A stretch of DNA of 64,000 bases from a virus. Shown one piece after another: positions 2,524-51,628 of this stretch; within the stretch, counting starts at the first letter, position 1; every line of letters starts with the position of its first letter. Under the pieces are notes generated by a model, which saw only the letters and a list, made by a program, of their open reading frames with translations, did no database searches and was not told the DNA's origin. Where the stretch lies: positions 1-64,000 of the IMG/VR virus record IMGVR_UViG_3300023184_009648. One strand, given 5' to 3'. The position numbers and the translations under genes were made by a program.

Positions 2524-2777
2524 TGAGCTTAGGATTTGCTCAATTGCCTAATTTGGCTTTTAAAAATCGACGATTAGTCGAACAAAGCCAAATTGCGGGA
2601 TGTTATCATTGCGGAAAAACTTTTTTACCTAAAGAAATAAAACAATATACAGACAATGAACAAACAATTATTTGTCCATTATGTGGTGTTGATGCAGTTT
2701 TGGGTGATATGGCAGGATTTTCAATTACAGAACAAAATTTGCAAAATGCCCAATATTATTGGTTTAAAAAGAATTAA
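2523..2777 (+). CDS. Small zinc-ribbon protein
   Basis: An 84-residue protein translated from an ATG overlapping the portal stop codon (TGATG), so it is probably translationally coupled; GGAGG lies just upstream. It has two CxxC pairs, CYHC at residues 27-30 and CPLC at 51-54, spaced as in a zinc ribbon, followed by GVDAVLGD. Similar short single-ribbon proteins occur in bacteria and phages without known function. Its place in the capsid operon suggests late expression. No function is assigned. Confidence 0.75.
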   Translation: MSLGFAQLPNLAFKNRRLVEQSQIAGCYHCGKTFLPKEIKQYTDNEQTIICPLCGVDAVLGDMAGFSITEQNLQNAQYYWFKKN

Positions 2778-3121
2778 ACTTTGTAGCCATCTGCAGAATT
2801 AGGATAAAGAGCTTCTTCTTCGCCAGAACGATCACCTAAACCTTTGTCGTTAAAAGTGCCATTCTGTTTGCTTTTTACATCTGGAAAAGAATCAAGACGA
2901 AAATCGTTTAGCATTCTTTTGATATCTGGCTCATTTCTTTGCTGGTTTAGAAAAGCAATAATAATTTCTGGACGACTTTCTAGAATTTTTTGAACAGCCC
3001 TCATAGCTATTTCAACAGCTTGTGCAGATTTTGGGTCACGCTCTTGATTTTCAGCATCTTTTTCAGACTTTTCATAAGAAGCTAATTCACGAAAAGATAC
3101 ATAATCGCCAAATGTTTTCAT
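2774..3121 (-). CDS. Putative capsid-targeted internal protein
   Basis: A 115-residue protein. The start was set at the second in-frame ATG because GAGGAAAGAA sits directly before it. The N-terminus MKTFGDYVSFRE matches the recurring capsid-targeting-like signal of this window, with FRE as a possible gp21 cleavage site. The rest is charged and probably helical, with an acidic tail (RSGEEEALYP). It lies on the opposite strand between the portal and core-protein genes, with its own TATATAAG promoter-like site upstream. Mature function is unknown; head packaging is inferred from the signal only. Confidence 0.7.
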   Translation of the reverse strand: MKTFGDYVSFRELASYEKSEKDAENQERDPKSAQAVEIAMRAVQKILESRPEIIIAFLNQQRNEPDIKRMLNDFRLDSFPDVKSKQNGTFNDKGLGDRSGEEEALYPNSADGYKV

Positions 3122-3147
3122 TTCTTTCCTCATTTTTACATTCTACA

Positions 3148-3160
3148 GCATACTTATATA
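3148..3160 (-). promoter_or_regulatory. Candidate late promoter for the 2774-3121 gene
   Basis: Read on the minus strand the site is TATATAAGTATGC, about 27 bases before the gene start. An almost identical TATAAGTATGC lies before the minus-strand gene starting at 6761. This resembles the T4 late octamer TATAAATA used with gp55, and a gp55-like gene is present in the window. Confidence 0.4.
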
Positions 3161-3281
3161 CTAGGCGGAACAAATTTTATTCCACGAAGAATAGAATATG
3201 AGATTGAAGTATACATACTTCATCTGCAAGCACCGAACCGCATGTAATTCGGATACTACCAGCACAGGGAGCTTAGTTATT

Positions 3282-5036
3282 ATGAAGAGAAAACTGATCA
3301 GCTTCGATGCATTTAAGAAAATCGAAGAAAGTTCACTTACAAAAACACAACAAGAATTGATCAAGGCTGAAGAAGTGCTTGCAAGAACACTGGGAGTCGA
3401 TGAACTCAAGCTGTTCTCGTTCGGCGAATCTGATGTCACATATCAGACGACGGACGGCAACTTCATTCATGCCGTTTATACTATTGATAACAATTCTGTT
3501 ATACTCGAAAACATAGAATTGCTCGTTATTGAAGAAGAAAGCGAGCGTTCTTCCGCAAAGAAAATTCTCAACGATCTCGTTGACAGCATTCTTGAAAACA
3601 AGGTTGCTGAAGCCGATTTGTTGTTTGAGAATTATTTCAATCTTCCTTGCATTCGTCGCACTATAACGAATGAAGGTGCAAAAGCTTCTCCTCTTAAAGG
3701 TCACAAACAAGATGCGGCTCTTATTGCAAAGCGCACAGCGTCACGCAATAGAACCTTATCTCTTATGAGCTCTACCTTGCGTAAATCCAAGCTTGGTGGC
3801 AAAAAGAAGAAGCCTTTTAAACTTTTCTTCAAGAAAATGAGCGAAAAGAAGATGAAGGATTGTGCTACCGTAGCTGAAAATGTTTTAGGTTACATCAATT
3901 TTCAACAATATGGCCCAATAATCAATGAATCTGCTGTTCGAACGGATAATCAAGGTTCTGTGACAGCTGTTCGCATTCCAACTGAATTAAAGCGCAATGA
4001 ATCTAAAGTTTTAAGCTTGGGCTATAAGACCATGGACACCGAATTAAAGGTTCTTCGTGGTAAGTTGAAGCACATTAACGAAGATCAAACTTTCGTTAAA
4101 GCTATGGCTGATCTCAAGCGTTACAATAACATTTCAGACAATAGGGCTTTGGAAGAAACACTTGAATCTATTGTTTCTCGTTGGCCTGATCTTCTCTACA
4201 TTAGCGAAGCAGAATTGTCAGATCAAATTGCTGCTGCTTTAGAAACCGCAAATGTAAAGAATTATGATGACCGCACATGTGCTTTTATGGCTGAAGCCAT
4301 TTTACGCACTGCACATCATGCTTACACTGATCGTGTTCGCAAGATTGGCGTTCTTGGTGGTGCTAAATCTGATATTACCGCTGAGTGCAAAACTTGTGAA
4401 GACGCTTATAAGTCTTTTTCCTCTGTTTCTGAAAGTTTGTTTAATCAACTTGACGAAAGCGAAGAGAACGAACTTCATATTTTTGCCGATCTTTACAACG
4501 CCTTGAACGAAGTTCATCGTGCTGCTGTTGAAGCAAACGATGAGGCAACCCGAATTGAAGTCTCTGACTTTATGAAGGAATGTGCTGCTATCGTAAATCG
4601 CAAAACCGAAATCAACATGGAATTGGCTGAATCTATTGCCGATTACCTTGCAAATATTTTTGAAGGCGATGAAGGCTCACATTGGGATACTGGCGTTGAA
4701 GTTGACGCTATTGGAAACCACAGCATGACTAAGTGGAACGCTAAGCAATCTGCTGTTGCTAGCAATAACACTGGCATGTGGAAAAGCCCTGCTCCCGTAA
4801 GCAACGGCAAGAGTTATTCTGATGGTCTTGAAAATGAAGCTGGTCTCGGAAATATTGCCTCGGATTCTACTTGGCCCGATGTCAAGAATCCCTATCTTCT
4901 CCAAAGTCAAATGCCAAAAATGAAAGAAAAGAATGTGGCTGATGAGGATGGATTAGGCGGAACCGATGGAAATACTTGGCCTAACCTTAGCAATCCCATG
5001 GCTCTCAAGCCTGTGATGCCCAAACCTGTTGTTTAA
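3282..5036 (+). CDS. Putative large prohead core / internal head protein
   Basis: A 584-residue protein between portal and prohead protease, the position where T4-like phages often carry small core proteins (gp67, gp68). The chosen ATG has AGGGAGC upstream and gives the N-terminus MKRKLISFDAFKKIEES, which fits the capsid-targeting-like signal (IEE site). A longer in-frame start at 3198 lacks a ribosome site. The middle is Lys-rich (LGGKKKKPFKLFFKKMSEKK, near residues 170-190). The tail has two similar segments ending in TWPDVKNPYLL and TWPNLSNPMAL. A role in the core or as an internal protein is inferred from position and signal. No enzymatic motif was recognised. Confidence 0.75.
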   Translation: MKRKLISFDAFKKIEESSLTKTQQELIKAEEVLARTLGVDELKLFSFGESDVTYQTTDGNFIHAVYTIDNNSVILENIELLVIEEESERSSAKKILNDLVDSILENKVAEADLLFENYFNLPCIRRTITNEGAKASPLKGHKQDAALIAKRTASRNRTLSLMSSTLRKSKLGGKKKKPFKLFFKKMSEKKMKDCATVAENVLGYINFQQYGPIINESAVRTDNQGSVTAVRIPTELKRNESKVLSLGYKTMDTELKVLRGKLKHINEDQTFVKAMADLKRYNNISDNRALEETLESIVSRWPDLLYISEAELSDQIAAALETANVKNYDDRTCAFMAEAILRTAHHAYTDRVRKIGVLGGAKSDITAECKTCEDAYKSFSSVSESLFNQLDESEENELHIFADLYNALNEVHRAAVEANDEATRIEVSDFMKECAAIVNRKTEINMELAESIADYLANIFEGDEGSHWDTGVEVDAIGNHSMTKWNAKQSAVASNNTGMWKSPAPVSNGKSYSDGLENEAGLGNIASDSTWPDVKNPYLLQSQMPKMKEKNVADEDGLGGTDGNTWPNLSNPMALKPVMPKPVV

Positions 5037-5050
5037 ATAAAGGAGTTTTC

Positions 5051-5728
5051 ATGGATAACAATCAGGTCTTATTTATTGATTGCTGCACCAACGGCGGCTT
5101 CCACATGAATCTGAACGAGTCAGTCACCGATAGGGGACTGACTAAGTTTAGAGGAAAGTTCCAAGAAGCTGAAGCTGTCAATAAAAACAAGCGTATCTAT
5201 CCCTTTTCAGTACTCGACGAAAATGTCAAGAAACTGAATCCTATTATTGAAGCTCGTGGATTGATTGGTGAGTTAGATCACCCTACCGATTCAATCATCC
5301 ACTTTGACAAATGCTCCCATGTTGTTACAAAACTATGGTGGGAAGGCAATAATCTTATGGGCGAAGGCGAAATTCTCAATACACCTTATGGAAAGATATT
5401 AAAAACTCTTTTAAATGATGGTGTGCGTGTTGGAATTAGCAGCCGTGGCGTCGGAAATGGACGCAGCGACGAAAATGGAATTCTAGTAATTGGTGAAAGC
5501 TACAAACTCATTACATTTGATGCCGTAGCAGATCCTTCAACTCATTCAGCATTCCAAGAAAAAGTCGTGGGTGGCAAGAAAGAAAGCTATGTTCCGACTG
5601 AAAGCCAAGCTCCTGCTAAATTCTTAACAAAAAATGAATCCAAGAAACATGTTTCGAAAGACGCACTCTTGGCCTGCATTAGTGGCATCATTAAGAATGA
5701 AGCATCTGCTATCGCATCTAGGATCTAA
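5051..5728 (+). CDS. 21: Prohead core protease (T4 gp21-like)
   Basis: A 225-residue serine protease that cleaves scaffold, capsid and internal proteins during T4-type head maturation. The catalytic His lies in GELDHP (H77) and the nucleophile in GISSRG (S130 or S131). FDAVADPS near residue 161 matches the conserved acidic region. AAAGGAG precedes the ATG. It sits between the putative core protein and the scaffold, separated from the latter by a LAGLIDADG-type gene on the other strand. In T4 this enzyme prefers (L/I)-x-E sites, and such sites end most of the N-terminal signals catalogued in this window, so it is the likely processing enzyme for them. Confidence 0.93.
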   Translation: MDNNQVLFIDCCTNGGFHMNLNESVTDRGLTKFRGKFQEAEAVNKNKRIYPFSVLDENVKKLNPIIEARGLIGELDHPTDSIIHFDKCSHVVTKLWWEGNNLMGEGEILNTPYGKILKTLLNDGVRVGISSRGVGNGRSDENGILVIGESYKLITFDAVADPSTHSAFQEKVVGGKKESYVPTESQAPAKFLTKNESKKHVSKDALLACISGIIKNEASAIASRI

Positions 5729-5749
5729 ATTTGTAAATAATTTGCCTAA

Positions 5750-6924: not shown

Positions 6925-7827
6925 ATGGACAAGATTTTAGAAGCATTGAAAAATCTCTTACCTGAAGCAGAAGTCAATGAAGTGGCTAATGCTATTAACG
7001 GTTTGTTGGAGCAGGCTAAACAAGACCTAGAAACTGAATACAATTCTAAACTTGAAGAAGCCTATGCCGAGCTTACTACCGAATTAGGTAATGCTGAAGA
7101 AACTGCAGAGACTGGCTACGAAGAAGCTTACGCCATTATTGGCGACCTTCGTAATCGTCTTGAAGTTCAAGGCCAAGAATACCAAGCCGCTCTTGAAGAG
7201 GGCTATGAAGAAGCGTATCAGATGCTTAAAGCTGAACGCTCCAAAAATCAAAATATCGAAGTTGAAATGTATGAAGAATACGACAAGAAACTTCGTGAGA
7301 TGAAAGAATACATTGTTAACAATGTAGATAAGTATCTCCAATTCAAAGGTCAAGAAGTTTACGAACAAGTTCGTCGTGAAGTTCTTGCTGATCCTCGTAT
7401 TGTTGAGCACAAGGTTGCTCTTGATAAGATTATCGGCATTACCTCCAATTATGTGTCTGCTGACGAATTCGCTGGCGTGAACAACGCTAAGGTCGAAGAA
7501 GCCATCAAGCAAGTTGATGAACTTAAAGGTCAGTTACGCATTCTTGAAGCTCGCAATATCCGAATCAGCACGGAAAACACCAAGCTGAATGAGGCTGTTC
7601 GTCAAGCTCAAGATGTTATCAATGAGAGCCGACAAGTCGTTTCTCGTGAAAAGAAAGCCGCTGTTATCAGCGAGCAGAATGAAAGAGTACAGAAAGCAAA
7701 GAATGTAACGGGGAGAGGAAACACTTCCAGCCAACAAGTTGTCATTGCGGAACATGCCAACAGTGCTGGTGGTAACGCCGATTTGGACCAAATGTTGGTT
7801 CTATCGGGCTTGAAACGAGCTAACTAA
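6925..7827 (+). CDS. 22: Prohead core scaffolding protein (T4 gp22-like)
   Basis: A 300-residue, highly charged, almost entirely helical protein placed between protease and major capsid genes, the T4 order. It assembles the internal core of the prohead and is then degraded by gp21. Near residues 59-90 there are two similar Glu-rich segments, TGYEEAYAII and EGYEEAYQML. Long coiled-coil stretches follow to about residue 250, and the tail LDQMLVLSGLKRAN is typical of T4-like scaffolds. GAGGAT upstream and a promoter-like site support the start. Confidence 0.88.
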   Translation: MDKILEALKNLLPEAEVNEVANAINGLLEQAKQDLETEYNSKLEEAYAELTTELGNAEETAETGYEEAYAIIGDLRNRLEVQGQEYQAALEEGYEEAYQMLKAERSKNQNIEVEMYEEYDKKLREMKEYIVNNVDKYLQFKGQEVYEQVRREVLADPRIVEHKVALDKIIGITSNYVSADEFAGVNNAKVEEAIKQVDELKGQLRILEARNIRISTENTKLNEAVRQAQDVINESRQVVSREKKAAVISEQNERVQKAKNVTGRGNTSSQQVVIAEHANSAGGNADLDQMLVLSGLKRAN

Positions 7828-7866: not shown

Positions 7867-9300
7867 ATGAACGCTAATGCAGCATTTTTGAACGAGGCTA
7901 AGGAGTTGGAAACTCGCTGGTCTAAGACCGGACTCCTCGAAAACATTCAGGATCGATATGTCCGTGCTACGACAGCAGTCCTTCTCGAAAACCAAAGGCT
8001 TATGAACGAAACCAGCACCGACACAGGTGATGTGGCCCAGTTCAAACGCATCTCGATCCCGCTGGTTCGCCGTATTTATCCCCAGCTGATCGCTAACAAG
8101 ATCGTTTCTGTCCAGCCATTGCTTGGACCAACCGGTCTCGTTTACTATCTCCGTTTCCGTTACGCATCCAATAAGGGTGCTACCCGTGGAGCAGACAAAC
8201 TCGGCTTCCCCGGCGATGACGCTAACTCCCTCATGCAGAGGGCTGACGGTACAGCCAATTTGGATGTATTCTACTCCAGCCAATTCGTGCAAAATGAAGT
8301 GAGCGCAACTGACGCTGGTCTCACCACCACCGCTTCTTACGCCGCTTTTGAGCACACCCCCATTCTTGCTGGAACCGTAACTGGTACCATCTATGATGGT
8401 GGCACAGCTATCCAGACCTTTACTGTGTCTGCAGCTGGTGCTTTCGCTTTCAATGATATCGGATCTCCTTCCCCCAAGGTGACCGCTGGTAGCCTTAGCC
8501 TTACCTCTGGTGAGCTTACCTTGACTTGGAACAGCGCTCCCGGTAGCAACAATGTTGTTATATCTTATGAATACAACATGGAATGCAACCAAGATCTTCC
8601 CGAAATCAACCTCGTTGTTGAAGGCGAAGAAATCGCTGCTAAAACTCGCAAGCTCAAGGCTGTATGGAGCTATGAAGCTCAACAAGACCTTCGCAGCCAG
8701 CACAATCTGGACGCTGAGGCTGAATTGACAGCTGTTCTTGCTCAGGAAATCAACCTCGAAATCGACCGTGAAGTTCTCGGCGACTTGCGCAACAACGCAG
8801 GTACCGTTAGTGCATGGGATTTCAACACCGCTCTAGGCGAAACCATCAAGGAAAAATACGAAAGCCTTTATGTTAAGGTTGTAGAAATTTCCAATGTTAT
8901 CCACAGAAAGACCCTTCGTGGTGGTGCTAACTGGATCGTGACCAGCCCAGAAGTTGCCTCGATCTTCGAGACCGCTACCGCTGGCTTCGCTCCTGCTCCT
9001 AGCGAAACCTTCACAAGCTCCATCGGCGTTCAATATGTCGGTACTGTGAACAATCGTTGGAGGCTCTACAAAGATCCTCTCTTCCCAAGCAATCAAATCC
9101 TCATGGGTTACAAGGGCGATAGCTACATGGACAGCGGTTATTTCTACTGTCCTTATGTTCCTCTCACCCAAACCCCTGTTGTGTTAGATCCTGAGAGCTT
9201 CTGCCCTCGTAAAGGAATTTTAACACGCTATGGTAAGAAATTGCTCCGTGAAGGTGCTAAGTTCTACGCCCGTATGTCGATTGCAAACTTCGTAATCTAA
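7867..9300 (+). CDS. 23: Major capsid protein (T4 gp23-like)
   Basis: A 477-residue HK97-fold capsid protein. Family hallmarks are VQPLLGPTGLVYYLRFRY near residue 80, an inserted beta-rich domain at about 165-240 (AGTVTGTIYDGG to VVISYEYN), the EGEEIAAKTRKLKAVWSYE segment near 257, and a C-terminal YARMSIANFVI. T4 gp23 loses an N-terminal propeptide to gp21; here LLE at residues 39-41 or MNE near 46-48 are possible sites. Codon use is more G+C-rich than in neighbouring accessory genes, as expected for a highly expressed protein. A strong terminator follows. Confidence 0.95.
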   Translation: MNANAAFLNEAKELETRWSKTGLLENIQDRYVRATTAVLLENQRLMNETSTDTGDVAQFKRISIPLVRRIYPQLIANKIVSVQPLLGPTGLVYYLRFRYASNKGATRGADKLGFPGDDANSLMQRADGTANLDVFYSSQFVQNEVSATDAGLTTTASYAAFEHTPILAGTVTGTIYDGGTAIQTFTVSAAGAFAFNDIGSPSPKVTAGSLSLTSGELTLTWNSAPGSNNVVISYEYNMECNQDLPEINLVVEGEEIAAKTRKLKAVWSYEAQQDLRSQHNLDAEAELTAVLAQEINLEIDREVLGDLRNNAGTVSAWDFNTALGETIKEKYESLYVKVVEISNVIHRKTLRGGANWIVTSPEVASIFETATAGFAPAPSETFTSSIGVQYVGTVNNRWRLYKDPLFPSNQILMGYKGDSYMDSGYFYCPYVPLTQTPVVLDPESFCPRKGILTRYGKKLLREGAKFYARMSIANFVI

Positions 9301-11681: not shown

Positions 11682-11969
11682 ATGAAATTCTCTGATTTTT
11701 CCGCTGCTATGAATGAGCACAAAGATGCTAGTTTTGCCGTCGTTGGCCTTAAGGGCAAAATGATGGACGCTGTTATTGCTGACAATCTTGTGAAGTTATC
11801 ACTTGTTGAACAGCCCAAAAAGCATTTTGAAACTGTTGCCAATGTACTTGTAGTTATTGGCAAACTTGATGCTGCTGCAGCTGCCAATTTGGAAGTTGTA
11901 GTAAATGGCAAAGTTATTACTTCTGCTGAGTTCAATGGCGAAGACTATATGGTTTGCAAAGTTTCCTAA
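11682..11969 (+). CDS. Small protein with capsid-targeting-like N-terminus
   Basis: A 95-residue protein with a very strong ribosome site (AAGGAGGGG). The N-terminus MKFSDFSAAMNE fits the recurring signal, though less perfectly than others, with MNE as a possible cleavage site. The rest is Ala/Val-rich with a mixed alpha-beta pattern. It is followed at 27 bases by a second small gene with an equally strong ribosome site, so the two are probably co-transcribed and abundant. Confidence 0.65.
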   Translation: MKFSDFSAAMNEHKDASFAVVGLKGKMMDAVIADNLVKLSLVEQPKKHFETVANVLVVIGKLDAAAAANLEVVVNGKVITSAEFNGEDYMVCKVS

Positions 11970-12546: not shown

Positions 12547-13410
12547 TTATTTTCTTTTTTTGATTTCTTCAACTAAATTTGATACAAGCTTTACGGCAGC
12601 GTCGATAAGTTCGCTTTTTTTAGCCTCTATATTATTAACGCTATAAGCTTTTTTATAACCAAAAACATGCCCTGATATACAATTTTCGGGTACAAAAATG
12701 CCTGAATATCGGCATTGATTAACAATCGGCATAATAGCTTGTTCTGGGCTTATATAATAGTTACTTTTCATTTCGGCCATAGCAAGTGGCATACGACGAC
12801 CAACATAGTCATTTGCTCCATCATCGCCATGGATAAAGAAAGCTCCAACCTTACCTTCATAATGATTTTTAAGTAGCTCCCTATGCTTTCCTGATCTTTC
12901 CATAGCAATAGTCACAGATGGATCTTTAAATTTATCACCCATAATTTTTTTTGCATCTTTTTGATTAAGTGTCAAACTAACACAAACAAGACGATCAAAA
13001 AATGCTTTAACTTGGGTTGAAGGGGCATACCAGTGAACTGGGGTAAATACGGCAAAACCATCTGCTTCTTCCATTTTTTTATAAACATCTTCTTCGTGCA
13101 TGTAATCATTAGTTCCATCGCCTTTTGAATAGCAAGAACAAGGATAATGGCAATGGAAGCCGTTTGATGTTGCCACACATCCTTTGCATGGTCGAACTAC
13201 GGGATCTGTATCCATAACTCTGAGATTAAGGGGTATAACCTTAATGTCTTTTGCAAGTGATTGTAGGGCTTTATTATAAATAAATTCAGTTTTTGAATCA
13301 CCGCCAGAACATGAGTCTTTAGTTCTAGGGCTGCCTTGAATAACAACGATTTTGATGCCTTCATCATTGTTTTTAGTAGTTTCTGCGAGATATTCAACAA
13401 ATGTCTTCAT
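12547..13410 (-). CDS. NADPH-dependent FMN reductase-like flavoprotein with capsid-targeting-like N-terminus
   Basis: A 287-residue flavodoxin-fold protein. An in-frame start at 13587 would add a low-complexity Phe/Ser stretch antisense to the neighbour, so MKTF at 13410 was chosen. Residues 1-10, MKTFVEYLAE, closely match the T4 internal-protein targeting sequence and end in LAE. The enzyme begins at about residue 19: IVVIQGSPR holds the phosphate-binding loop for FMN, PCKGC and CHYPCSC (residues 75-93) resemble the cysteine cluster of iron-sulfur flavoproteins, and FTPVHWYAPSTQVKAFFDR is the conserved NADPH-FMN reductase segment. It may be packaged into the head as a redox enzyme; that is inferred from the signal. 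Its partner gene diverges upstream. Confidence 0.82.
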   Translation of the reverse strand: MKTFVEYLAETTKNNDEGIKIVVIQGSPRTKDSCSGGDSKTEFIYNKALQSLAKDIKVIPLNLRVMDTDPVVRPCKGCVATSNGFHCHYPCSCYSKGDGTNDYMHEEDVYKKMEEADGFAVFTPVHWYAPSTQVKAFFDRLVCVSLTLNQKDAKKIMGDKFKDPSVTIAMERSGKHRELLKNHYEGKVGAFFIHGDDGANDYVGRRMPLAMAEMKSNYYISPEQAIMPIVNQCRYSGIFVPENCISGHVFGYKKAYSVNNIEAKKSELIDAAVKLVSNLVEEIKKRK

Positions 13411-13453: not shown

Positions 13454-13783
13454 ATGAAATCATTTAATGAATATTTGGCGGAAAAAGATGAGATAAACAT
13501 ACATGAAGTTGCAAAAAAAACTGCTACGAAAAAAGATGTAAAGAAAAAAGATGTAAAGAAAAAATCATCAACTGTTCCAAGCAGCAATCGTATTAAGGGT
13601 ATGGTTGCACTGGTCGATTCGCTTAAAAAGTTTTTTGGCGAATATGACTTACCTACCCGTCAATTTCTTTGGAACAGGCTTACCACACCAAAAGGCAAGG
13701 AATTATTGGAAAAAGTGCTAAGAAATCCTAATGCAAATCTTACGAATAGTGTTTTTGTGCAATTGGTTACAACAAAGAAATAA
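13454..13783 (+). CDS. Basic putative internal head protein
   Basis: A 109-residue protein with AAGGAGAA before the ATG. MKSFNEYLAE at residues 1-10 is one of the best matches to the T4 capsid-targeting sequence, with an LAE cleavage site. A Lys-rich linker (KKDVKKKDVKKK) follows, then a small helical domain near residues 45-105. The strong positive charge suits binding to packaged DNA, like the T4 internal proteins. It diverges from the flavoprotein gene. Confidence 0.75.
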   Translation: MKSFNEYLAEKDEINIHEVAKKTATKKDVKKKDVKKKSSTVPSSNRIKGMVALVDSLKKFFGEYDLPTRQFLWNRLTTPKGKELLEKVLRNPNANLTNSVFVQLVTTKK

Positions 13784-13857
13784 TTGTAGTTGATATTCAG
13801 CACTGATCGTGGTATTATATCTTTGCACACGGAATGTGCAGAAAGAGAGAGTGTTTT

Positions 13858-14603: not shown

Positions 14604-14948
14604 TTAATTTGAGCACCTACATTTCCAAACTCTGAGTGCAGCATTGATTTTGCTATTAGGATCATTAGCTGTTGCAGCAGAGGTGTTGTGTTTACGCATA
14701 CCGCACATGCGACTGCAAAAACTTTTGCGTCGAGCTTGGGTTTTTTCTGACATCTTGCTGACTCCACCTTTTCGTTCTGCTTCTCGCTTAGTTTCAATTC
14801 CTGCGTGAATTCCAAGTTTTTTTGCATAAGAAGGCTTTAATCCACCTTCAGGATGATGTTTTTTAGGGTTAAAGCCTCTAAATGGTTTTTTGTTTTCATC
14901 CAGAATTTTTGGATCACGGTTATTCAGCCATTCGTGAAAACTTTGCAT
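14604..14948 (-). CDS. DUF6321-like basic protein with capsid-targeting-like N-terminus
   Basis: A 114-residue basic protein; GAGGAGC precedes the ATG. It begins MQSFHEWLNNRDPKILDE, a variant of the recurring signal (EWLxxRDP). The rest, with GGLKPSYAKKLGIHAG, RRKSFCSRMCGMRK, DPNSKINAALRVW and a KCRC tail, matches a small conserved phage protein type that I recall as DUF6321. Four cysteines may bind zinc. It diverges from the 15000-15176 gene, which carries the same signal. Confidence 0.75.
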   Translation of the reverse strand: MQSFHEWLNNRDPKILDENKKPFRGFNPKKHHPEGGLKPSYAKKLGIHAGIETKREAERKGGVSKMSEKTQARRKSFCSRMCGMRKHNTSAATANDPNSKINAALRVWKCRCSN

Positions 14949-14999: not shown

Positions 15000-15176
15000 A
15001 TGACATTCAAAGAGTGGCTTACGAAGATTGAAGAGGCTTGGTTTAGTAAGGGCAAAGGTCGTCCTATGAAGCCTAATGCTAGAGATGTTAAGCCTAAACC
15101 TCATGATCTGCATAATTGCGGACAAGGTGGTGGACCCGGCCCTTGCGATGGCGGAGCTCCAGTTGCTGCTGGCTAA
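15000..15176 (+). CDS. Very small protein with capsid-targeting-like N-terminus
   Basis: A 58-residue protein. The start gives MTFKEWLTKIEEAW, a close match to the signal with an IEE site; the ribosome site is weak. After the signal it is basic (FSKGKGRPMKPNARDVKPK) and then Gly/Pro-rich (GQGGGPGPCDGGAP). It lies head-to-head with another signal-bearing gene at 14948. Cleavage would leave a peptide of about 46 residues. Confidence 0.6.
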   Translation: MTFKEWLTKIEEAWFSKGKGRPMKPNARDVKPKPHDLHNCGQGGGPGPCDGGAPVAAG

Positions 15177-16810: not shown

Positions 16811-17347
16811 TTAATCCTCCAAGACTCCAGCATCATTTAGAGACCGAGCAAGTTTTATAAGATGTTTGCACATACCGGGCAGTTCCAAAGGATTGGAAGA
16901 GCCGGGATTTACTTTCGCTTCATACTTTGATCGCACACGCCCATATAACAACTTGCGAAGACTGTCCTCGTAATTGAAACGCCAATAAAAATCGGCACAA
17001 TTACAACGAACTACGACTTCGTTGGTGTAGTTAATTTTTTCAAAGACATGTTTGCGTCCATCACTTGCAACAATCTCAATCCAGTTACGGTTCTGCTTAG
17101 AATCGTGGTAATTAACCTTTTTAAACAAGATGAGAGGCTTGTATTCCTTGCCATTTCCTTCATTCTTGGCCAACCCTTTGACCAATAGAGTTTTAACACC
17201 TTTAAAGGGTGTCCAGTCCATTTGACGAACAACAATTTCATCTATTGCGTGTTGTCGCTTGGTGGTTCTAGGGAAAGCCCTAATTGTGTCTGCGTACAAA
17301 CCTGAAAGATTTGCCTCTTGCAGGGATAACCATTTTGTAAACTCCAT
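16811..17347 (-). CDS. SWIM-type zinc-finger protein with capsid-targeting-like N-terminus
   Basis: A 178-residue protein beginning MEFTKWLSLQEANL, which fits the signal with LQE as possible cleavage site. The C-terminal part has RCNCADFYWRF (C115, C117) and GMCKHLIKL (C160, H162), the CxC...CxH pattern of SWIM zinc fingers, with a conserved YGRVRSKY linker. Similar proteins occur in large T4-like and cyanophage genomes. SWIM domains bind nucleic acid or protein. Head packaging is inferred from the N-terminus. Confidence 0.72.
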   Translation of the reverse strand: MEFTKWLSLQEANLSGLYADTIRAFPRTTKRQHAIDEIVVRQMDWTPFKGVKTLLVKGLAKNEGNGKEYKPLILFKKVNYHDSKQNRNWIEIVASDGRKHVFEKINYTNEVVVRCNCADFYWRFNYEDSLRKLLYGRVRSKYEAKVNPGSSNPLELPGMCKHLIKLARSLNDAGVLED

Positions 17348-17859: not shown

Positions 17860-19983
<2,124 letters not shown>

Positions 19984-40697: not shown

Positions 40698-40922
40698 ATG
40701 AAAACATTCGTTCAATGGGCTGAAACAGTAAAGAAAGAACTTCCAGTTTATGTGCAAGACGAGGCGACTCGTCGTGCCGGTATTGCATATTGGGCTTACC
40801 CTGATGCTTATATTCGCAATCAATATCCCGATTCTTGGTTCACTCCTTATGCTGCTGATGCTGCTTTCAAGCTAGGCTATGCAAAAGGTGGTCCAAAAGC
40901 TGGTAAGGAAATTGCGGGTTAA
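40698..40922 (+). CDS. Capsid-targeting-like small protein, first of tandem paralogues
   Basis: A 74-residue protein; GAGGAAAAAA precedes the ATG at 40698, favouring it over the ATG twelve bases earlier. MKTFVQWAETV is a good match to the signal (WAE site). The body has AGIAYWAYPDAYIRNQYPDS, shared with the next gene. The stop overlaps the next start by one base. The pair looks like a recent tandem duplication. Confidence 0.7.
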   Translation: MKTFVQWAETVKKELPVYVQDEATRRAGIAYWAYPDAYIRNQYPDSWFTPYAADAAFKLGYAKGGPKAGKEIAG

Positions 40923-42751: not shown

Positions 42752-43226
42752 TAGGGTCTCTATATTGAACCCAATCGGAAAAAGATTTTCTGAAATGGTA
42801 CAAAATTTTACGCTTAAAAAATGGCCAAGATTCTTTAAAGCTAGAGTGTAATTTTAAATTTTCTACTTCATCAATGTTAACCCAAACACTATCACTATGT
42901 TCGTCAGAAATACTTACTTTAAAAGGTTTATCAATAGCATAAAAAAAAGTAGTAAAACGAAATCTTCCATCAATATCTTCATAATCACCAAAACGATAAC
43001 CTTCAAAATTTCCACATTCTTCAATAGCTTCTCGTTTGGCAGCATCTATAGTACTTTCGCCTTGTTCAACTTTTCCACCGGGTATGCACCAGCTTTCAAA
43101 GTGATTTCCTTTAGTGGCTCGTTTCAATAAAAGAATTTTTTGGCCATCAGTGAAAAGAATGCCAGCACCTGATTTGCCCCAATATTTTCTTCCATCTCTA
43201 CCAATCCGATGATACTGTTCGTTCAT
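42738..43226 (-). CDS. Nudix hydrolase
   Basis: A 162-residue protein with a full Nudix box, starting GGKVEQGES and continuing to REAIEECG (G51, E57, R65, E66, E69, E70). It hydrolyses a nucleoside-diphosphate-linked compound; the substrate cannot be read off. The C-terminus ends SFSDWVQYRDPTIL, which resembles the N-terminal signal EWLNNRDPKIL of the 14604-14948 product. Its ATG overlaps the stop of the upstream gene. Confidence 0.88.
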   Translation of the reverse strand: MNEQYHRIGRDGRKYWGKSGAGILFTDGQKILLLKRATKGNHFESWCIPGGKVEQGESTIDAAKREAIEECGNFEGYRFGDYEDIDGRFRFTTFFYAIDKPFKVSISDEHSDSVWVNIDEVENLKLHSSFKESWPFFKRKILYHFRKSFSDWVQYRDPTILP

Positions 43227-43816
43227 CGCTTTGGACCTCTCTTCAACGGAACCGGTTTAAGCTTTTCTATTTGTCGATCTGGCTGATCTTTAAAATAATG
43301 CATTGTATTAGTTAATTCACGGCTAATTTCAGATGCAGAAGTGCCTGTGCATTTTGTGGAGTTTTGTAATGAAACTGTTTTACGATCACGGTTGTAAAAT
43401 CCTTTACTCAAAACAAAACATCTAAGTTCAGGATGCCAAGTTACAACGCCTACCCATTCACCATCATCCCAATTACGAGATGAAACAATTAGGCGTAAAG
43501 GTTTTTCACTATAAACATGTTTTGTGTGATAACCTTGATTTTTCATTGCAGCACTAATATAGCCAAGACAAATGCGAGCAAAACCTTCAAGGGCTTCGTC
43601 GGCTTTTGTACGATAATTGACCTCAACACTGTAGCGTGAGGTTTCAACAGCTTCTACTAGGTTTTTTTGACGATATTCTTGAAAAGTCTTCATAGAACCA
43701 CGAAGAGTGGCTCCAAAATATTCTTTGCAAATTTGAACAAAATCTTCTTGTGAGACTTCTTTAGGCATAAAGTCTGCAAGACTCTGTTCCTTGCGCCAAT
43801 TAAAAAAATCTTTCAT
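43223..43816 (-). CDS. Protein with two capsid-targeting-like segments
   Basis: A 197-residue protein; GGAGACAAAG precedes the ATG at 43816. It begins MKDFFNWRKEQSLADF, then at about residue 42 has a second, even better signal, MKTFQEYRQKNLVEA. An internal start at 43693 is possible but lacks a clear ribosome site. The remainder is a mixed alpha-beta domain (YSVEVNYRTKADEALEGFAR, then WVGVVTWHPELRCFVLS). It is coupled to the Nudix gene and diverges from the HExxH gene. Confidence 0.7.
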   Translation of the reverse strand: MKDFFNWRKEQSLADFMPKEVSQEDFVQICKEYFGATLRGSMKTFQEYRQKNLVEAVETSRYSVEVNYRTKADEALEGFARICLGYISAAMKNQGYHTKHVYSEKPLRLIVSSRNWDDGEWVGVVTWHPELRCFVLSKGFYNRDRKTVSLQNSTKCTGTSASEISRELTNTMHYFKDQPDRQIEKLKPVPLKRGPKR

Positions 43817-45447: not shown

Positions 45448-48258
45448 ATGCAAACATCATTCAGAGAATTTCTATTTCAAGCCATTGAAAAAGATGGAGC
45501 TTATAAGTTTTTAAAGCCAACGATTCGTAAAATCGATGAAATGGCTTTATACGGGGATGTTTCTCGTATGCCAATCAATATCGACAAAGATGATATTGAT
45601 TTTTTAAAACAATTTCCACATCAGTATTGGCCCGAGGCGATGCATCAAAGATATCAATATCTTTTTCATGCAATTAAAAAACAACATGAAACTCGTAAAG
45701 CAATGGGGTGGGATGAATTAGAAGATGCTATTATTGATGCTATGAAAACTGGCGATTATTCTAAGTTAGAAACCCTTGAAGAGCCTCTTGCTTTAGACAA
45801 AAAAGAAATAGAAAAAATTAAAGAATTCAAACCAGAGTATACCGCCACTCTTGAAGACGATGAAATAGAAAAAATCGCAGACAAAATTGCATGGGAACAT
45901 TTAAAAAAATCTACAGATTTTGTTGATGACCCAGAAACTCTTGAGTTTTCTTTTAAAGAAAAACTACTTCATCCAACAACTGGTAAGCCTATTAAAACTC
46001 GTACTCAACGGCGTTTTACAAAAACAGCTAAGCCATTCTTAAATCGTCTTTATCATAAAATTGAGCGCACCGCTGGATTGCCTCATATATCGGGTTCCGG
46101 TCTTGAAGGAGAAATTGCAAAGTATGGCTATGATCTTCGTAACCCGATTGAAGATCCAGAAGGAGCTCATGCTACCACTGGATTTGCTATTCCTAAACTT
46201 GGAGCAATTAAAGATCGTATGCGTGCTTTTATGAATTTAAACGCACACAGCATGTTTGGAAAAATTGATGATCCTGATGTTGTTTGGAAGCCTGTTAATG
46301 CAGAAGATAGTGAAACTGCTGAACAATATCTTAATGTTTATCGCAAAGAATTTGAAGCTCAGCTTAAGAAAAACAAAAATTTGACAATGGATCAGGTTCA
46401 ATCTCAGGCTCGGAAGCTATCAAAGGAAAAATTAGCTGAAAAATTTCCTAATGGAACACTTCGTGGCCCTGCATATCCGGGCGTCGAAGGTGCTGAAAAT
46501 GGTTTTCCAGTAACATTTAAGCGCAAAGAAAATGGTGAAATTCAAGTAATAAATCCACCACTCTATATGCCTTTCAAAAAAATGCCTAATGGCGAACTTG
46601 CTCCTTATCCTGAGGTAAAATCCGCCCATTTCTACCGACCTCTTAGAGACAGTGAATATGTGCGAGATGATCAAGGAAACAAAGTTAAAGATGAAAACGG
46701 TAATTTTAAAACAACAGTAAACCCTGAAAAATTAACTGGTCACAAAAAAGACCATGTTAAAATTGATGATGATGAATTTCAATATGGAATCGATATTCAA
46801 AAAGATGCTGCGATTGATCCTAATCATAACACTCAAAAGAAAGATTTTTTAGTTCGTGGAACATCCGAATACGAAGAAGCTTTTAGTAAAGTTTTTGCAA
46901 ATCAATCTGAAGTTGATGTTGTAAATGGAAGAATGGTTGATGCTCCTCACAGTGGTCTCTATCGAGATATTATACAAGGAATTTTAAATTGCGTTCGCAA
47001 CAAATGTGGAGACATGACTGATTTTGAAGCTGCAATTATGATGCAGAATATATCACAAATTCATGGTTTGATCTATATGTCTATGCTTGAAAGTCTAAAT
47101 CTAAAAAAACAAGCTAGAAGCTTAAGTGATAAAAATAATCGTGTAGAATGGGCTTTCAAAAAGGCTTCATCTTATGCTCAAAAAGATCATGGTGGAGGCA
47201 CACGCCGTCTTCGTGCTCTTAGCGATGCTGCTCGTGCTACACAAACTCGTCGTCACACAACAAGGCGTCGTTTCGACACTTCGGGAATGAAATTCCCTTA
47301 TCGAATTGAAAACTACAATAAGTTTCTTCAAGATCTTGCTGACTTGCGTGAGCGTGCTGCAAAGGCTGATGCTGAAGCAAAACAAGCTGTAGCAGCTGTG
47401 TCTCGTCGTCGTTCTGCATCAGAAGGAATTGGAAATTTACTCACAACATCTTTGCAAGACCGTGCTAAAGTAGCTGATGACCTTGTATTGTTATTAGCTG
47501 TTATTCACCAAGAGTTTGGCGAAGGCACAACTGATTCTCAAAAATACGCAGAAGACACAATTAAGTCTTTCATTGAACAAGGTATGGACTCTATTCAACT
47601 TGTAACAGCTTTTCAAAATTTAGATGTTGTTAAAAAGGCAAAAGAAGAACTCAAGGTTGAACCAGATGTTGGCTCTACCGAAGAACCTAAAGTCAGTACT
47701 GATTCTGATATGCAAAGAGAAATTAGAGATGCTAACAACATCTTTGGCAACGATTTCAATATTGATTTGCAAAGGGTTTCTGGAAACAAACAACATCCTG
47801 AAATTTTATCAAAATACAAAGCAACCATCTCCGGAGCTCTTAGTCGATATGTAAGCACAGAATTAAAACAAAAAATTAAAGGTGAACATCAATGGCTTAG
47901 CATGCCCGAAGGTGCTGAAGATCTAGACAAAGTTCTTAAAGCCGTTCAAAAGGCAATTGATGAACGCATGGCTATGCCAGAATTACCTAGAGGTGCAGAA
48001 ACAGGAGGACAAGCTCGTGTTCGCATAGGAACAGATTCCGGCAAAAACTGGTTTCAAAATCTTCAATCACAAACACCAGAAGGCTATTTTCATGTAGCAC
48101 ATGATCCAATTTTTCATAAAAGGGCTCCAGTAGAAAAATTAAAAGATTTGAAAAATTATTTTAATCAAAACGCAGATAAATTTCACCCTGAAGACCATGC
48201 ATCAGCATTGAATGCATTAGATGCAGCAATCAGAGAAAAAAAGGTGACTAATGGCTAA
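45448..48258 (+). CDS. Very large putative internal/ejected protein with capsid-targeting-like N-terminus
   Basis: A 936-residue protein, the largest non-structural candidate here. It starts MQTSFREFLFQAIEKDG, consistent with the signal. Residues to about 230 are helical; a middle region (VQSQARKLSKEKLAEKFPNG, then RPLRDSEYVRDDQGNKVKDE) looks folded; a basic Arg-rich stretch lies near 590-615 and a coiled coil near 640-660. No enzyme motif was recognised. Size and signal suggest an internal head protein delivered with DNA. Confidence 0.72.
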   Translation: MQTSFREFLFQAIEKDGAYKFLKPTIRKIDEMALYGDVSRMPINIDKDDIDFLKQFPHQYWPEAMHQRYQYLFHAIKKQHETRKAMGWDELEDAIIDAMKTGDYSKLETLEEPLALDKKEIEKIKEFKPEYTATLEDDEIEKIADKIAWEHLKKSTDFVDDPETLEFSFKEKLLHPTTGKPIKTRTQRRFTKTAKPFLNRLYHKIERTAGLPHISGSGLEGEIAKYGYDLRNPIEDPEGAHATTGFAIPKLGAIKDRMRAFMNLNAHSMFGKIDDPDVVWKPVNAEDSETAEQYLNVYRKEFEAQLKKNKNLTMDQVQSQARKLSKEKLAEKFPNGTLRGPAYPGVEGAENGFPVTFKRKENGEIQVINPPLYMPFKKMPNGELAPYPEVKSAHFYRPLRDSEYVRDDQGNKVKDENGNFKTTVNPEKLTGHKKDHVKIDDDEFQYGIDIQKDAAIDPNHNTQKKDFLVRGTSEYEEAFSKVFANQSEVDVVNGRMVDAPHSGLYRDIIQGILNCVRNKCGDMTDFEAAIMMQNISQIHGLIYMSMLESLNLKKQARSLSDKNNRVEWAFKKASSYAQKDHGGGTRRLRALSDAARATQTRRHTTRRRFDTSGMKFPYRIENYNKFLQDLADLRERAAKADAEAKQAVAAVSRRRSASEGIGNLLTTSLQDRAKVADDLVLLLAVIHQEFGEGTTDSQKYAEDTIKSFIEQGMDSIQLVTAFQNLDVVKKAKEELKVEPDVGSTEEPKVSTDSDMQREIRDANNIFGNDFNIDLQRVSGNKQHPEILSKYKATISGALSRYVSTELKQKIKGEHQWLSMPEGAEDLDKVLKAVQKAIDERMAMPELPRGAETGGQARVRIGTDSGKNWFQNLQSQTPEGYFHVAHDPIFHKRAPVEKLKDLKNYFNQNADKFHPEDHASALNALDAAIREKKVTNG

Positions 48259-49828: not shown

Positions 49829-50743
49829 ATGCGTATCCCAGAATTTAAGAGTTGGTTTGTTGAGCAAGAAACATTTACTTTTATTGAGGTCATCCGTGAG
49901 GTTCTTGAATTAAGAAATCTTACTGAGAGCATTCAAGCTCTTGAAGATGAAATTTCTAAGGCAACTGGCGTTCAAGCAAACTGGGTAAATATTTTAGGAG
50001 CTAAAGCCATGCGTAGTGGCAGATTTTCGCCAAGAGATTTGCGTGGCGAACATGCTGCATTCGAAGCTCTTACTAGAATTCTTATGGATCTTCAACCGGG
50101 TAAAAATTTAAAAAATACAGTTGATGAAATTGGTGATCGTTTAGCTGATAATCCAGAGCGAAAAAACAAAGAAATCATTGCTCTTTTAACTTCAGTTGCA
50201 GGAAAAAGAGGCATTGATGTTCGCAAGCGCATTACAAGCAAAGATGATGAAGGTGCTCCTATAGGGGTTGGATCTATTGATAGCGAAGAGGGAATGGGAG
50301 CTATGCACACGGCTCTTAGTGGCCGAAGAGGCGGAAGCGTAACTGGTGCTGATTTGAGCGAATTTGAGGAAATGATGATCAATGCTCTTCGCCAAATGCA
50401 ACAGGGAGCAACTCGTCCTACCCAAGAACGCCTTGAGCAAGCTATTAAAATTGTTCCAGATCGTCTCAAAGGCATGACGGATACTGAGCTTGCTGCTCAT
50501 CACAATTTAAGCGATTCAAGAGTTGAACAAATTATGCAAGACATTTTTGCTGCTATGGAAAAGGCAGCCCAACAACTTGGCGAGCCATGGATTAGTCAAG
50601 TCCGTCGTCAGTTGGCAATGCGTCGAAGGCCTCGTGCTGTTGTAGAGCCTACTTCAGCTAGTTCTTCTATTGGTTCGTCAACAGCTACCGCTCATCCTGC
50701 ACCTTCACCGTTGATTCACGGGTCTGCTGAAACAGGACTGTAA
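49829..50743 (+). CDS. Putative internal protein with sigma-like helix-turn-helix
   Basis: A 304-residue protein starting MRIPEFKSWFVEQETF, a match to the signal (FVE). The middle is helical and charged. Near residues 218-250, MTDTELAAHHNLSDSRVEQI and the helix after it resemble the region-4 helix-turn-helix of sigma factors. The C-terminus is disordered (Ser/Thr/Pro-rich). If packaged, it could be a DNA-binding protein injected with the genome. Confidence 0.65.
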   Translation: MRIPEFKSWFVEQETFTFIEVIREVLELRNLTESIQALEDEISKATGVQANWVNILGAKAMRSGRFSPRDLRGEHAAFEALTRILMDLQPGKNLKNTVDEIGDRLADNPERKNKEIIALLTSVAGKRGIDVRKRITSKDDEGAPIGVGSIDSEEGMGAMHTALSGRRGGSVTGADLSEFEEMMINALRQMQQGATRPTQERLEQAIKIVPDRLKGMTDTELAAHHNLSDSRVEQIMQDIFAAMEKAAQQLGEPWISQVRRQLAMRRRPRAVVEPTSASSSIGSSTATAHPAPSPLIHGSAETGL

Positions 50744-50761
50744 TCTATCGAGGAGGACAAG

Positions 50762-51304
50762 ATGGCCTTAAAAAATCTCGATGGAACACCATATCAAGTA
50801 AGAGGCAGCTATCAGATGTATGATCCAAATGATCGTACACATGATTTGTTTAATCTTTGGGATCAAGAAGCAATTAAAAGAGGCGGCTCTCCAATTTACT
50901 ATTACGAGGTCATCATTTCTCCAAATATGATTGACCCCATTTATCTTGAAGCTCGCAACAAATTGTTTTCAAACAATCCAGTACAATTGTGGTGTAATTA
51001 TGAGCCTATTCCATCTCAGAATCTTATCAATCAATTTGGAATAGATGCTCCAGATGAAATGAAATTTGAATTAAATTACAGAGCCCTTTTACAAGCTGTG
51101 GGACATCCTCCCAAGATTGGATCTCGTTTATTCACTCCTCATTTGCGAGAAAATTGGGTAATTGTACAAAGAAATCTTGGTGAGTTTAAAATGTGGGGAG
51201 CTTTGCGTATTGAATTGATATGTCAAAGATTTCAAGAAGATGTTGTTACTGGCGATGGTAAGGTTTCTCAAAAAGAACCTGATCTTAAAATTAAAATTGT
51301 ATAA
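50762..51304 (+). CDS. 14: Neck protein (T4 gp14-like)
   Basis: A 180-residue protein with GAGGAGG before the ATG. The central pattern (EAIKRGGSPIYYYEV, IDPIYLEARNKLF, INQFGIDAPDEMKFEL, PPKIGSRLFTP, ENWVIVQR) follows that of T4 gp14, which joins head to tail. It is shorter than T4 gp14. It precedes another signal-bearing gene and gp15. Identification rests on pattern, not alignment. Confidence 0.55.
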   Translation: MALKNLDGTPYQVRGSYQMYDPNDRTHDLFNLWDQEAIKRGGSPIYYYEVIISPNMIDPIYLEARNKLFSNNPVQLWCNYEPIPSQNLINQFGIDAPDEMKFELNYRALLQAVGHPPKIGSRLFTPHLRENWVIVQRNLGEFKMWGALRIELICQRFQEDVVTGDGKVSQKEPDLKIKIV

Positions 51305-51313
51305 AGGAAAATA

Positions 51314-51628
51314 ATGCTATCATTCTATGAATTAAACCAAAAAATGATTAAAGAAGCTGGTCCGGGTATGGTAGCTGGTCCGGGCATGGCGGCTGGTATG
51401 GCTGGTGCTCCACAACAATCTTTGGCAGCCCAACCACCTGATCCTGCTATAATAAGTCTTCAAAAGGCTCTAACACAAATTAAAGATCCTCAAACAAAAA
51501 GTTCTTTATCAAATTTGGTTAATACAGCACTAAGTCAAAAAACATTAACAGGAAAAGTTCCACCTACAGCACAACAACTTAAAGCTGCTCAAACGATGCA
51601 AGCATACCAACCAACAAAAACGACTTAA
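51314..51628 (+). CDS. Small protein with capsid-targeting-like N-terminus
   Basis: A 104-residue protein with AAAGGAAAA before the ATG. The signal is MLSFYELNQKMIKEAG (IKE site), followed by a Gly/Met/Ala-rich stretch with two GPGM repeats and a helical C-terminal half. It lies nine bases after the gp14-like gene, so it shares its transcript. Confidence 0.65.
   Translation: MLSFYELNQKMIKEAGPGMVAGPGMAAGMAGAPQQSLAAQPPDPAIISLQKALTQIKDPQTKSSLSNLVNTALSQKTLTGKVPPTAQQLKAAQTMQAYQPTKTT

What the first reader, a model, noticed from the sequence alone, without database searches (positions are those of the whole stretch)
2774..51628. About twenty unrelated proteins share a capsid-targeting-like N-terminus: a candidate packaged proteome
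Genes starting at (strand) 3121(-), 3282, 11682, 13410(-), 13454, 14948(-), 15000, 17347(-), 19983(-), 22726, 22929, 23237, 23595, 36485(-), 40698, 40922, 43816(-), 43843, 45448, 49829 and 51314 begin with variants of M-K-[ST]-F-x-[EQ]-[WYF]-L-x-E, while the rest of each protein is different. T4 internal head proteins use MKTYQEFIAE for packaging and are cut after its Glu by gp21. Almost all copies here have a hydrophobic-x-Glu site at the right place, and gp21 is encoded in the window. The passengers include a flavoprotein, an HExxH protein, a SWIM protein and a 936-residue protein. This would be a modular cargo system much larger than that of T4.
Basis: partly seen in the sequence, partly recalled or inferred. 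Interest (0 to 1): 0.92.

Follow-up and report, generated by a model that had tools for sequence, protein, structure and literature searches.

The report
Packaging tags on many huge-phage proteins
A very large bacterial virus, and its relatives, put the same roughly 12-residue tag on the front of dozens of otherwise unrelated proteins; the tag matches the one phage T4 uses to load proteins into its head, so these viruses probably inject a much larger set of proteins with their DNA than any T4-type phage known to us.

Summary
A profile trained only on this phage finds the N-terminus in 10-45 proteins of each of seven independent relatives (165 found against about 12-13 expected above 8 bits), but hardly in a cyanophage or a more distant huge phage. 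The window is part of an 86-kb record whose nearest annotated-collection relative is a 595-kb uncultured phage. The leader (M-x-[TS]-F-[KR]-[EQ]-[WFY]-L-E-x-x-E) is aromatic at the positions that target T4 IPIII into the head, ends sharply after a conserved Glu, and sits on about 150 unrelated families, gained or lost between orthologues. A gp21-type protease is encoded beside it. Two findings go further. Leader genes share a gp55-type late-promoter box with virion genes (45% and 37%, against 11% of other genes), often 10-11 nt before ATG with no Shine-Dalgarno, which predicts leaderless late mRNAs. Promoter plus leader DNA is also duplicated in front of unrelated genes. Best explanation: a T4-like capsid-targeting system expanded about ten-fold and spread as a copy-paste "late promoter + packaging tag" cassette. 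Some predicted passengers are counter-defence or RNA-repair types. Packaging and cleavage themselves are inferred; no virion proteomics exists for this clade.

The parts
1..2523 (+). gp20-type portal protein carrying an intein (head module)
   Evidence: PF07230 E=2.2e-72, intein PF14890 E=6e-12
3282..5036 (+). 584-aa protein in the gp67/68 position between portal and protease; N-terminus MKRKLISFDAFKKIEE, leader-like and found in most relatives
   Evidence: position and orthologues in 7 relatives, leader-like in 4-5 of them; T4 gene order 20-67-68-21-22-23
5051..5728 (+). gp21-type prohead protease, the presumed leader-cleaving enzyme
   Evidence: PF03420 Peptidase_S77 E=3.6e-24, phrog_207 E=5.5e-48
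6925..7827 (+). gp22-position scaffold candidate, presumed docking partner of the leaders
   Evidence: position between gp21 and gp23 and 49% identity to the LR756511 orthologue; no PHROG match
7867..9300 (+). gp23 major capsid protein
   Evidence: phrog_138 E=2.4e-84; 79% identity to LR756511
58101..58646 (-). gp55-type late sigma factor, presumed reader of the late boxes
   Evidence: phrog_234 late sigma factor E=2.9e-8
2774..3121 (-). leader protein MKTFGDYVSFRE|LAS
   Evidence: homologues with leader in relatives; late-like box at 39 nt
11682..11969 (+). possible leader protein MKFSDFSAAMNE|HKD (weakest member)
   Evidence: leave-one-out score -3.3, no orthologue found; box at 34 nt
12547..13410 (-). 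leader + FMN-reductase/flavodoxin-type enzyme, MKTFVEYLAE|TTK
   Evidence: PF03358 from residue 19; leave-one-out 8.3
13454..13783 (+). leader protein MKSFNEYLAE|KDE
14604..14948 (-). leader protein MQSFHEWLNNRDPKILDE|N
15000..15176 (+). leader protein MTFKEWLTKIEE|AW, predicted leaderless (TAAATA 11 nt before ATG, no SD)
16811..17347 (-). leader + zinc-finger-like (SWIM-type) protein MEFTKWLSLQE|AN
   Evidence: phrog_18980; orthologues with leader in LR756511, G003, G001
17860..19983 (-). 707-aa leader protein MITFSQRLQIEKNK (no clear cut site)
   Evidence: leave-one-out 9.8
22726..22932 (+). leader protein MLPGFKQWLEE|LLS, predicted leaderless
   Evidence: leaders kept in G001 and G007 orthologues
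22929..23240 (+). leader protein MNFQRLWESIELAKE
   Evidence: weak alone, strong leaders in G001, G002, G008 orthologues
23237..23593 (+). leader protein MKSFSQWKMQE|AQ
23595..24035 (+). leader protein MKSFYEFCRLLE|NNQ
35433..36485 (-). leader + Asp/Glu/His-repeat protein MLSYKHWKSLNE|SA
   Evidence: similar leaders (MLSYKQWK..LNES) in G001, G003, G007, G008
40698..40922 (+). leader protein MKTFVQWAE|TVK
   Evidence: family of 10, 8 above 8 bits
40922..41230 (+). leader protein MKTFLQWAE|IKH, paralogue of the previous one
   Evidence: same family
43223..43816 (-). double-leader protein: MKDFFNWRKEQ at the start and internal MKTFQEYRQKNLVE|AVE from 43693
   Evidence: internal copy; single-leader orthologues in G008 and LR756511
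43843..44487 (+). leader + HEATH (HExxH) protein MKISNFKQWLQE|QER, predicted leaderless (TATATA 10 nt before ATG, no SD)
   Evidence: top leave-one-out score 21.6; alignment; residues 1-29 low confidence in model
45448..48258 (+). 936-aa protein with leader-like N-terminus MQTSFREFLFQAIE; weaker member
   Evidence: leader-like in G000, G003, G001 and degenerate in other orthologues; no fold found
49829..50743 (+). leader protein MRIPEFKSWFVE|QET
   Evidence: leave-one-out 10.5; box at 24 nt
51314..51628 (+). leader protein MLSFYELNQKMIKE|AG
   Evidence: leave-one-out 6.1

Best explanation
The shared N-terminus is a capsid-targeting sequence (CTS) of the T4 type. It is an amphipathic peptide, consensus M-x-[TS]-F-[KR]-[EQ]-[WFY]-L-E-x-x-E, whose two aromatic residues dock the newly made protein to the prohead scaffold core. 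The gp21 protease then cuts after a hydrophobic-x-Glu site and leaves the passenger in the head, to be ejected with the DNA. The carrier is a huge T4-related phage clade. Each large genome carries roughly 25-45 tagged genes. They are expressed late, with the virion genes, from gp55-type boxes (TAAATA/TATATA), often placed so close to ATG that the mRNA should be leaderless. The unit 'late promoter + ATG + ~12-codon tag' is small enough to be copied in front of any gene, which explains the variety of passengers. Shown: the tag, its enrichment, its modularity, the co-encoded protease, promoter sharing, and DNA-level duplication. Inferred: docking to the scaffold, cleavage, packaging, ejection, transcription start sites, and the functions of passengers.
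For: Enrichment in 7 independent relatives with a profile trained only on G000: LR756511 45 vs 4.9, G001 28 vs 3.1, G002 30 vs 1.3, G003 23 vs 1.4, G005 14 vs 1.5, G007 15 vs 0, G008 10 vs 0. GC ranges from 0.32 to 0.56, so the signal is at protein level. Near none in S-ShM2, Mel-JY01 and LR756508. 185 tagged proteins fall in 152 mature-part families. Column information drops to background after F+9, and Glu at F+5/F+8 persists when proteins are selected on F..WL only. Hydrophobic-x-Glu in 123/153 vs 58 +/- 5 shuffled. gp21 protease present. An IMG/VR-wide scan for MKTFx[EQ]WL gives at least 120 stretches (row-capped) vs 19 for a permuted pattern; 8 of 21 large records found this way encode S77 gp21, 0 of 6 control records do. 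The profile ranks T4 gp61.1, IPII, IPIII and IPI 1st, 5th, 6th and 7th of 247. Late box within 80 nt: tagged 57/126, structural 17/46, replication 3/25, rest 250/2359; tagged vs rest p=2.5e-21, tagged vs structural p=0.39. Hexamers of the same composition are mostly not enriched. Box 9-13 nt before ATG goes with loss of SD, 5-6% vs about 75%, matching TATAAATA at -13 to -6 (PMC1524935). Genes chosen by promoter geometry alone are 49/102 tagged against about 6% of all called proteins. Promoter + tag duplicated before unrelated genes. Tag gain or loss between orthologues: NUDIX, 2H/Acb1-like, PolyA_pol. Mature parts more basic.
Against: No virion proteomics, N-terminal sequencing or genetics exists for this clade. 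The gp22 partner is identified by position only, with no PHROG match. The preferred Glu position (F+8, F+5) differs from T4's F+6. About 20% of tagged proteins lack a clear hydrophobic-x-Glu site. Some tagged proteins are replication- or repair-like (UvrD; a primase family whose N-terminus only resembles the tag), and about 5-10% of hits above 8 bits are expected by chance. The promoter boxes were picked after inspection of about 30 hexamers, and tagged genes in two records have slightly AT-richer upstream regions. The control set for the gp21 association is small and its contigs are shorter.
Confidence: 0.8

Rival explanations
1. The N-terminus is a docking peptide, but for another phage structure (tail or baseplate, a replication or assembly body, or a membrane site) rather than the head core, and is not removed.
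For: Docking alone would explain the conserved aromatics and the variety of passengers. About 20% of tagged proteins lack a clear protease site. Some passengers are nucleic-acid enzymes.
Against: The conserved positions coincide with those of the T4 CTS, Glu is conserved as a gp21 cut site would need, the profile retrieves T4's true internal proteins, gp21 is co-encoded, and the information ends right after the Glu. No tubulin-based phage nucleus was found.
Confidence: 0.12
2. The motif is a translation or expression feature: codons after ATG that favour initiation on leaderless late mRNAs, with the peptide itself unimportant.
For: Tagged genes are over-represented among predicted leaderless late genes.
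Against: Many tagged genes have an SD and no box (59 of 185), and about half of the predicted leaderless genes score as untagged. The conservation is of amino acids (W/F/Y with different codons, Glu at F+8, K or R at F+1) across GC 0.32-0.56.
Confidence: 0.04
3. The proteins are diverged paralogues of one ancestral gene, so the shared N-terminus is residual homology rather than a modular tag; or the pattern is chance.
For: A few tagged genes are true paralogues (40698/40922) and short proteins diverge fast.
Against: 152 unrelated mature families including named unrelated folds; tag present or absent between orthologues; DNA identity stops at the end of the tag; chance expectation is far lower.
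Confidence: 0.03

Closest known systems
T4 internal-protein (IPI, IPII, IPIII, Alt) capsid-targeting-sequence system with gp21 processing
   Same: Short N-terminal peptide with aromatic at 4 and 7 and hydrophobic at 8, Glu cut site, gp20-67-68-21-22-23 type head cluster, T4-type protease, late sigma gp55, passengers variable between relatives.
   Different: About ten times as many tagged genes per genome, Trp preferred at position 7, Glu mostly at F+8 or F+5, tags on recognisable enzymes, predicted leaderless late promoters joined to the tag, DNA-level duplication of promoter + tag.
Head-protein propeptides of giant phages SPN3US / phiKZ
   Same: Large packaged and ejected protein load; protease cuts after x-x-Glu (AXE).
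   Different: Propeptides mostly longer than 100 residues, only eight processed proteins in SPN3US, no common short tag (PMC5694885, PMC7411985).
P1 DarB capsid-targeting N-terminus
   Same: N-terminal 30 residues suffice to send a reporter into the head.
   Different: No consensus among Dar proteins and no expansion (PMC9024508).
Polyvalent proteins and MuF/portal fusions that carry NUDIX, 2H and ART enzymes into phage heads
   Same: Same idea of pre-loaded counter-host enzymes, overlapping enzyme types (NUDIX, 2H).
   Different: Those are large fusions inferred from domain architecture; here a ~12-residue detachable tag does the work (PMC9503650).

Membership tests
T4-type CTS / internal-protein system | Short N-terminal leader with key residues at positions 4 and 7 (targeting) and 8 and 10 (processing) | tested here: met
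   F 92% and W/F/Y 92% at the equivalent positions, L 52% at the next; Glu shifted to F+8 or F+5 in most (T4 data)
T4-type CTS / internal-protein system | gp21-family (S77) prohead protease in the same phage | tested here: met
   PF03420 E=3.6e-24 at 5051-5728
T4-type CTS / internal-protein system | gp22-type scaffold core to which the leader binds | tested here: inconclusive
   A conserved 300-aa protein sits in the gp22 position but matches no PHROG; binding cannot be tested
T4-type CTS / internal-protein system | Hydrophobic-x-Glu cleavage site at the end of the leader | tested here: met
   123/153 vs 58 +/- 5 after shuffling; actual cleavage untested
T4-type CTS / internal-protein system | Leader is modular, passengers unrelated | tested here: met
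   152 families; cassette duplications
T4-type CTS / internal-protein system | Proteins physically in the mature head, leader removed | not testable with these tools
   Needs virion proteomics
T4-type CTS / internal-protein system | Proteins enter the host with the DNA | not testable with these tools
   Needs infection experiments
SPN3US/phiKZ-type propeptide system | Propeptides mostly over 100 residues, AXE sites | tested here: not met
   Leader information ends about 12 residues in; P3 is L/W/F/I rather than A
Nucleus-forming phages (rival destination) | PhuZ tubulin | tested here: not met
   No PF00091 match in five records, some of them fragments

The most novel reading that the evidence does not exclude
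A clade of huge T4-related phages has turned the capsid-targeting sequence into a copy-paste genetic cassette, a leaderless gp55-type late promoter joined directly to a ~12-codon packaging tag. Inserted before arbitrary genes, it yields dozens of head-loaded passengers, including 2H/Acb1-like, CCA-adding/PolyA_pol, NUDIX and SAM-decarboxylase types that could act on host defences before any phage gene is expressed.
Probability: 0.55. Interest if true: 0.88.

Novelty: new variant of a known kind. Interest (0 to 1): 0.82.

Why it matters
T4 loads a handful of proteins into its head. If this reading holds, huge phages preload tens of different enzymes, and a 12-residue tag lets anyone list the cargo from sequence alone, including in metagenomes. 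That makes directly testable what huge phages deliver in the first seconds of infection and how they forestall defences. It also predicts leaderless late mRNAs in T4-related phages and points to an overlooked T4 candidate, gp61.1. In the held open-access literature I found no report of an expanded CTS proteome in huge phages; subscription papers were not searchable.

Tried and rejected
My prior idea that this N-terminus is common in cyanophages was wrong for the one tested, S-ShM2. Two structure predictions gave little: the HExxH protein model is of middling confidence (pLDDT 63) with no PDB match, and the 936-aa model is poor (pLDDT 48). Sequence searches of the PDB with both families found nothing useful. 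tblastn of the 936-aa protein in phage records found nothing. The full octamer TATAAATA was not associated with tagged genes; the shorter TATATA and TAAATA were. PADLOC hits were dominated by one UvrD-type helicase and give no defence reading. Apparent tags on two membrane proteins (27917, 28512) and on a primase family were rejected as chance resemblance.
Full report
OBSERVATION. The window is part of an 86,320-bp virus record; its flank holds two more copies, MMTTFKQFFMEAD near 77989 and MISFKEWLKSIEEG at 78785. A ten-column profile built from the 23 seeds gives 20 hits above 8 bits among 101 called proteins, against 1.3 expected from internal methionines and under 1 from shuffled N-termini. 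Those hits include the seeds. Leave-one-out scores are 6 bits or more for 16 of the 21. Of the five weak ones, four have relatives with strong leaders; 11682 has none.

WHAT THE VIRUS IS. The head module reads gp20 portal (with an intein), an 84-aa protein, a 584-aa protein, gp21 protease, gp22-position protein, gp23, the T4 order 20-67-68-21-22-23. The nearest record with a similar major capsid protein in the phage collection is LR756511, 595 kb, at 79% identity; the next huge one is a 484-kb record at 44%, and Microcystis phage Mel-JY01 shows 34%. IMG/VR holds at least 381 relatives. The window is therefore probably a fragment of a huge phage.

INDEPENDENT TEST. The profile, trained on this record alone, was run on seven relatives: LR756511 45 hits vs 4.9 expected from internal methionines, G001 (533 kb) 28 vs 3.1, G002 (343 kb) 30 vs 1.3, G003 (254 kb) 23 vs 1.4, G005 14 vs 1.5, G007 15 vs 0, G008 10 vs 0. 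Controls: T4 3 vs 1.1, LR756508 2 vs 1.4, cyanophage S-ShM2 0, Mel-JY01 0 (a 41-kb stretch). GC runs from 0.32 to 0.56, so this is not a composition effect. Across all of IMG/VR, DNA for MKTFx[EQ]WL gives at least 120 stretches (capped) against 19 for a permuted pattern. Of 21 large records found this way 8 encode the gp21 peptidase, against 0 of 6 (mostly shorter) control records.

ANATOMY OF THE LEADER. In 156 representatives, counting F as 0: T/S at -1; F 92%; K/R at +1; E/Q at +2; W 55%, F 25%, Y 12% at +3; L 52% at +4; E at +5 (36%), +6 (19%), +8 (46%). Information falls to background beyond +9. Columns -1 to +8 were used for selection, so I repeated the count selecting on F..[WFY][LVIMFAK] only: E is still 35% at +5 and 36% at +8. 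A hydrophobic-x-Glu site lies in place in 123 of 153, against 58 +/- 5 after shuffling and 20% of other proteins. In T4 IPIII, residues 4 and 7 carry the targeting and 8 and 10 the processing (PMC9026906); the aromatics here fall on 4 and 7. A profile from this clade puts T4 gp61.1, IPII, IPIII and IPI at ranks 1, 5, 6 and 7 of 247 T4 proteins.

MODULARITY. With the first 22 residues removed, the 185 tagged proteins fall in 152 families of 1900. An alignment of 130 of them keeps little more than MxxFxxWL at the N-terminus. Tags appear or vanish between orthologues: a NUDIX protein starts MIEFSKWREKKLNEQFHRIGKD in G007 and MNEQYHRIGRDG in this record; a PolyA_pol-type protein, a 2H/Acb1-like protein and a C39-peptidase-like protein behave likewise. 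The product of 43223-43816(-) has a leader, a short domain and a second leader (MKTFQEYRQKNLVE), where two relatives have one leader only. At DNA level, promoter plus tag is duplicated before unrelated genes: in L305 a shared GGCCTAGATAGGGC-ATGAAAACATTTTATGAATGGCT run, 80% identical over 69 nt, then 26% downstream; in G005, genes 90152/90666 and 94128/96689.

LATE EXPRESSION. A gp55-type late sigma factor is encoded at 58101-58646(-). TATATA and TAAATA, halves or near-variants of the T4 late box, lie within 80 nt upstream of 45% of tagged genes, 37% of structural anchors, 12% of replication anchors and 11% of the rest (tagged vs rest p=2.5e-21; tagged vs structural p=0.39). Most hexamers of the same composition show no association; those that do mainly overlap the same box (ATATAT, CTATAT, ATAAAT). 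In this record 16 of 23 tagged genes have a box against 14 of 82 others. The boxes pile up 10-11 nt before ATG (49 tagged genes), and in that class only 5-6% have a Shine-Dalgarno against about 75% of genes without a box. The T4 late box spans -13 to -6 (PMC1524935), so TAAATA 11 nt before ATG puts the start at the A of ATG: leaderless mRNA. Chosen by this geometry alone, 49 of 102 genes carry the tag. The boxes were picked after looking at about 30 hexamers, but the p-values survive such a correction.

PASSENGERS. Among 130 representatives, Pfam recognises 41 families, each matched by about one protein, including NUDIX, PolyA_pol, 2'-5' RNA ligase / Acb1, tRNA-ligase phosphodiesterase, SAM decarboxylase, C39 peptidase, FMN reductase, NIF phosphatase, radical SAM and UvrD helicase. 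Functions are predictions from families, and some 5-10% of tags are chance. Mature parts are slightly more basic than other proteins. Sequence and structure comparison gave nothing for the HExxH and 936-aa proteins.

MECHANISM AND RIVALS. The leader most likely docks passengers to the scaffold core, is cut by gp21 after Glu, and leaves them in the head for ejection (0.8). A docking peptide for another structure is the main rival (0.12); a translation effect (0.04) and common descent or chance (0.03) are unlikely. The docking partner, cutting, packaging and ejection are inferred.

NOVELTY. The kind is known: T4 internal proteins, P1 DarB, SPN3US propeptides, head-borne polyvalent proteins. Apparently new are the scale, the shared short tag on named enzymes, the link to predicted leaderless late promoters and the promoter + tag duplications. 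I found no report of these in the open-access library.

Noticed in passing
AF158101 (T4) 18966-19130, L369: T4 gp61.1, of unknown function, starts MKTFKEFIKED, a near-perfect capsid-targeting sequence and the top hit of the clade profile in T4; it may be an unrecognised T4 internal protein. It shares a short G[NK]PENI[ST]I stretch with the product of window 22726.
   Followed up: partly
15000, 22726, 43843 (window), 78785 (record) and about 100 genes in relatives: Late-promoter-like box 10-11 nt before ATG with no Shine-Dalgarno: a class of predicted leaderless late genes, tagged and untagged.
   Followed up: yes
1-2523: The portal gene carries an intein; the LR756511 portal aligns over the same length, so it probably carries it too.
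   Followed up: partly
5760-6761 (-): A possible homing-endonuclease-like ORF lies on the opposite strand between gp21 and the gp22-position gene.
   Followed up: no
35433-36485 (-): Tagged protein with long Asp/Glu/His repeats (DHEDHEDH...), with a similar tag in several relatives; could bind metal or mimic DNA.
   Followed up: no
43223-43816 (-): Two tags in one polypeptide separated by a short domain, with a good cut site after the second; may be processed into two products or have an internal start.
   Followed up: partly
13834-14136 (+): Small secreted Cys-rich peptide of a type that, from memory, resembles planctomycete proteins; a possible host hint.
   Followed up: no
19994-20770 (-) and 26281-27306 (+): A trypsin-like protease (by eye) and a subtilisin-like protease (phrog_3677) in the same phage.
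   Followed up: partly
L242, L305: Three exact tag DNA copies within 2 kb in each of two other IMG/VR contigs: dense tag clusters outside the record studied.
   Followed up: partly
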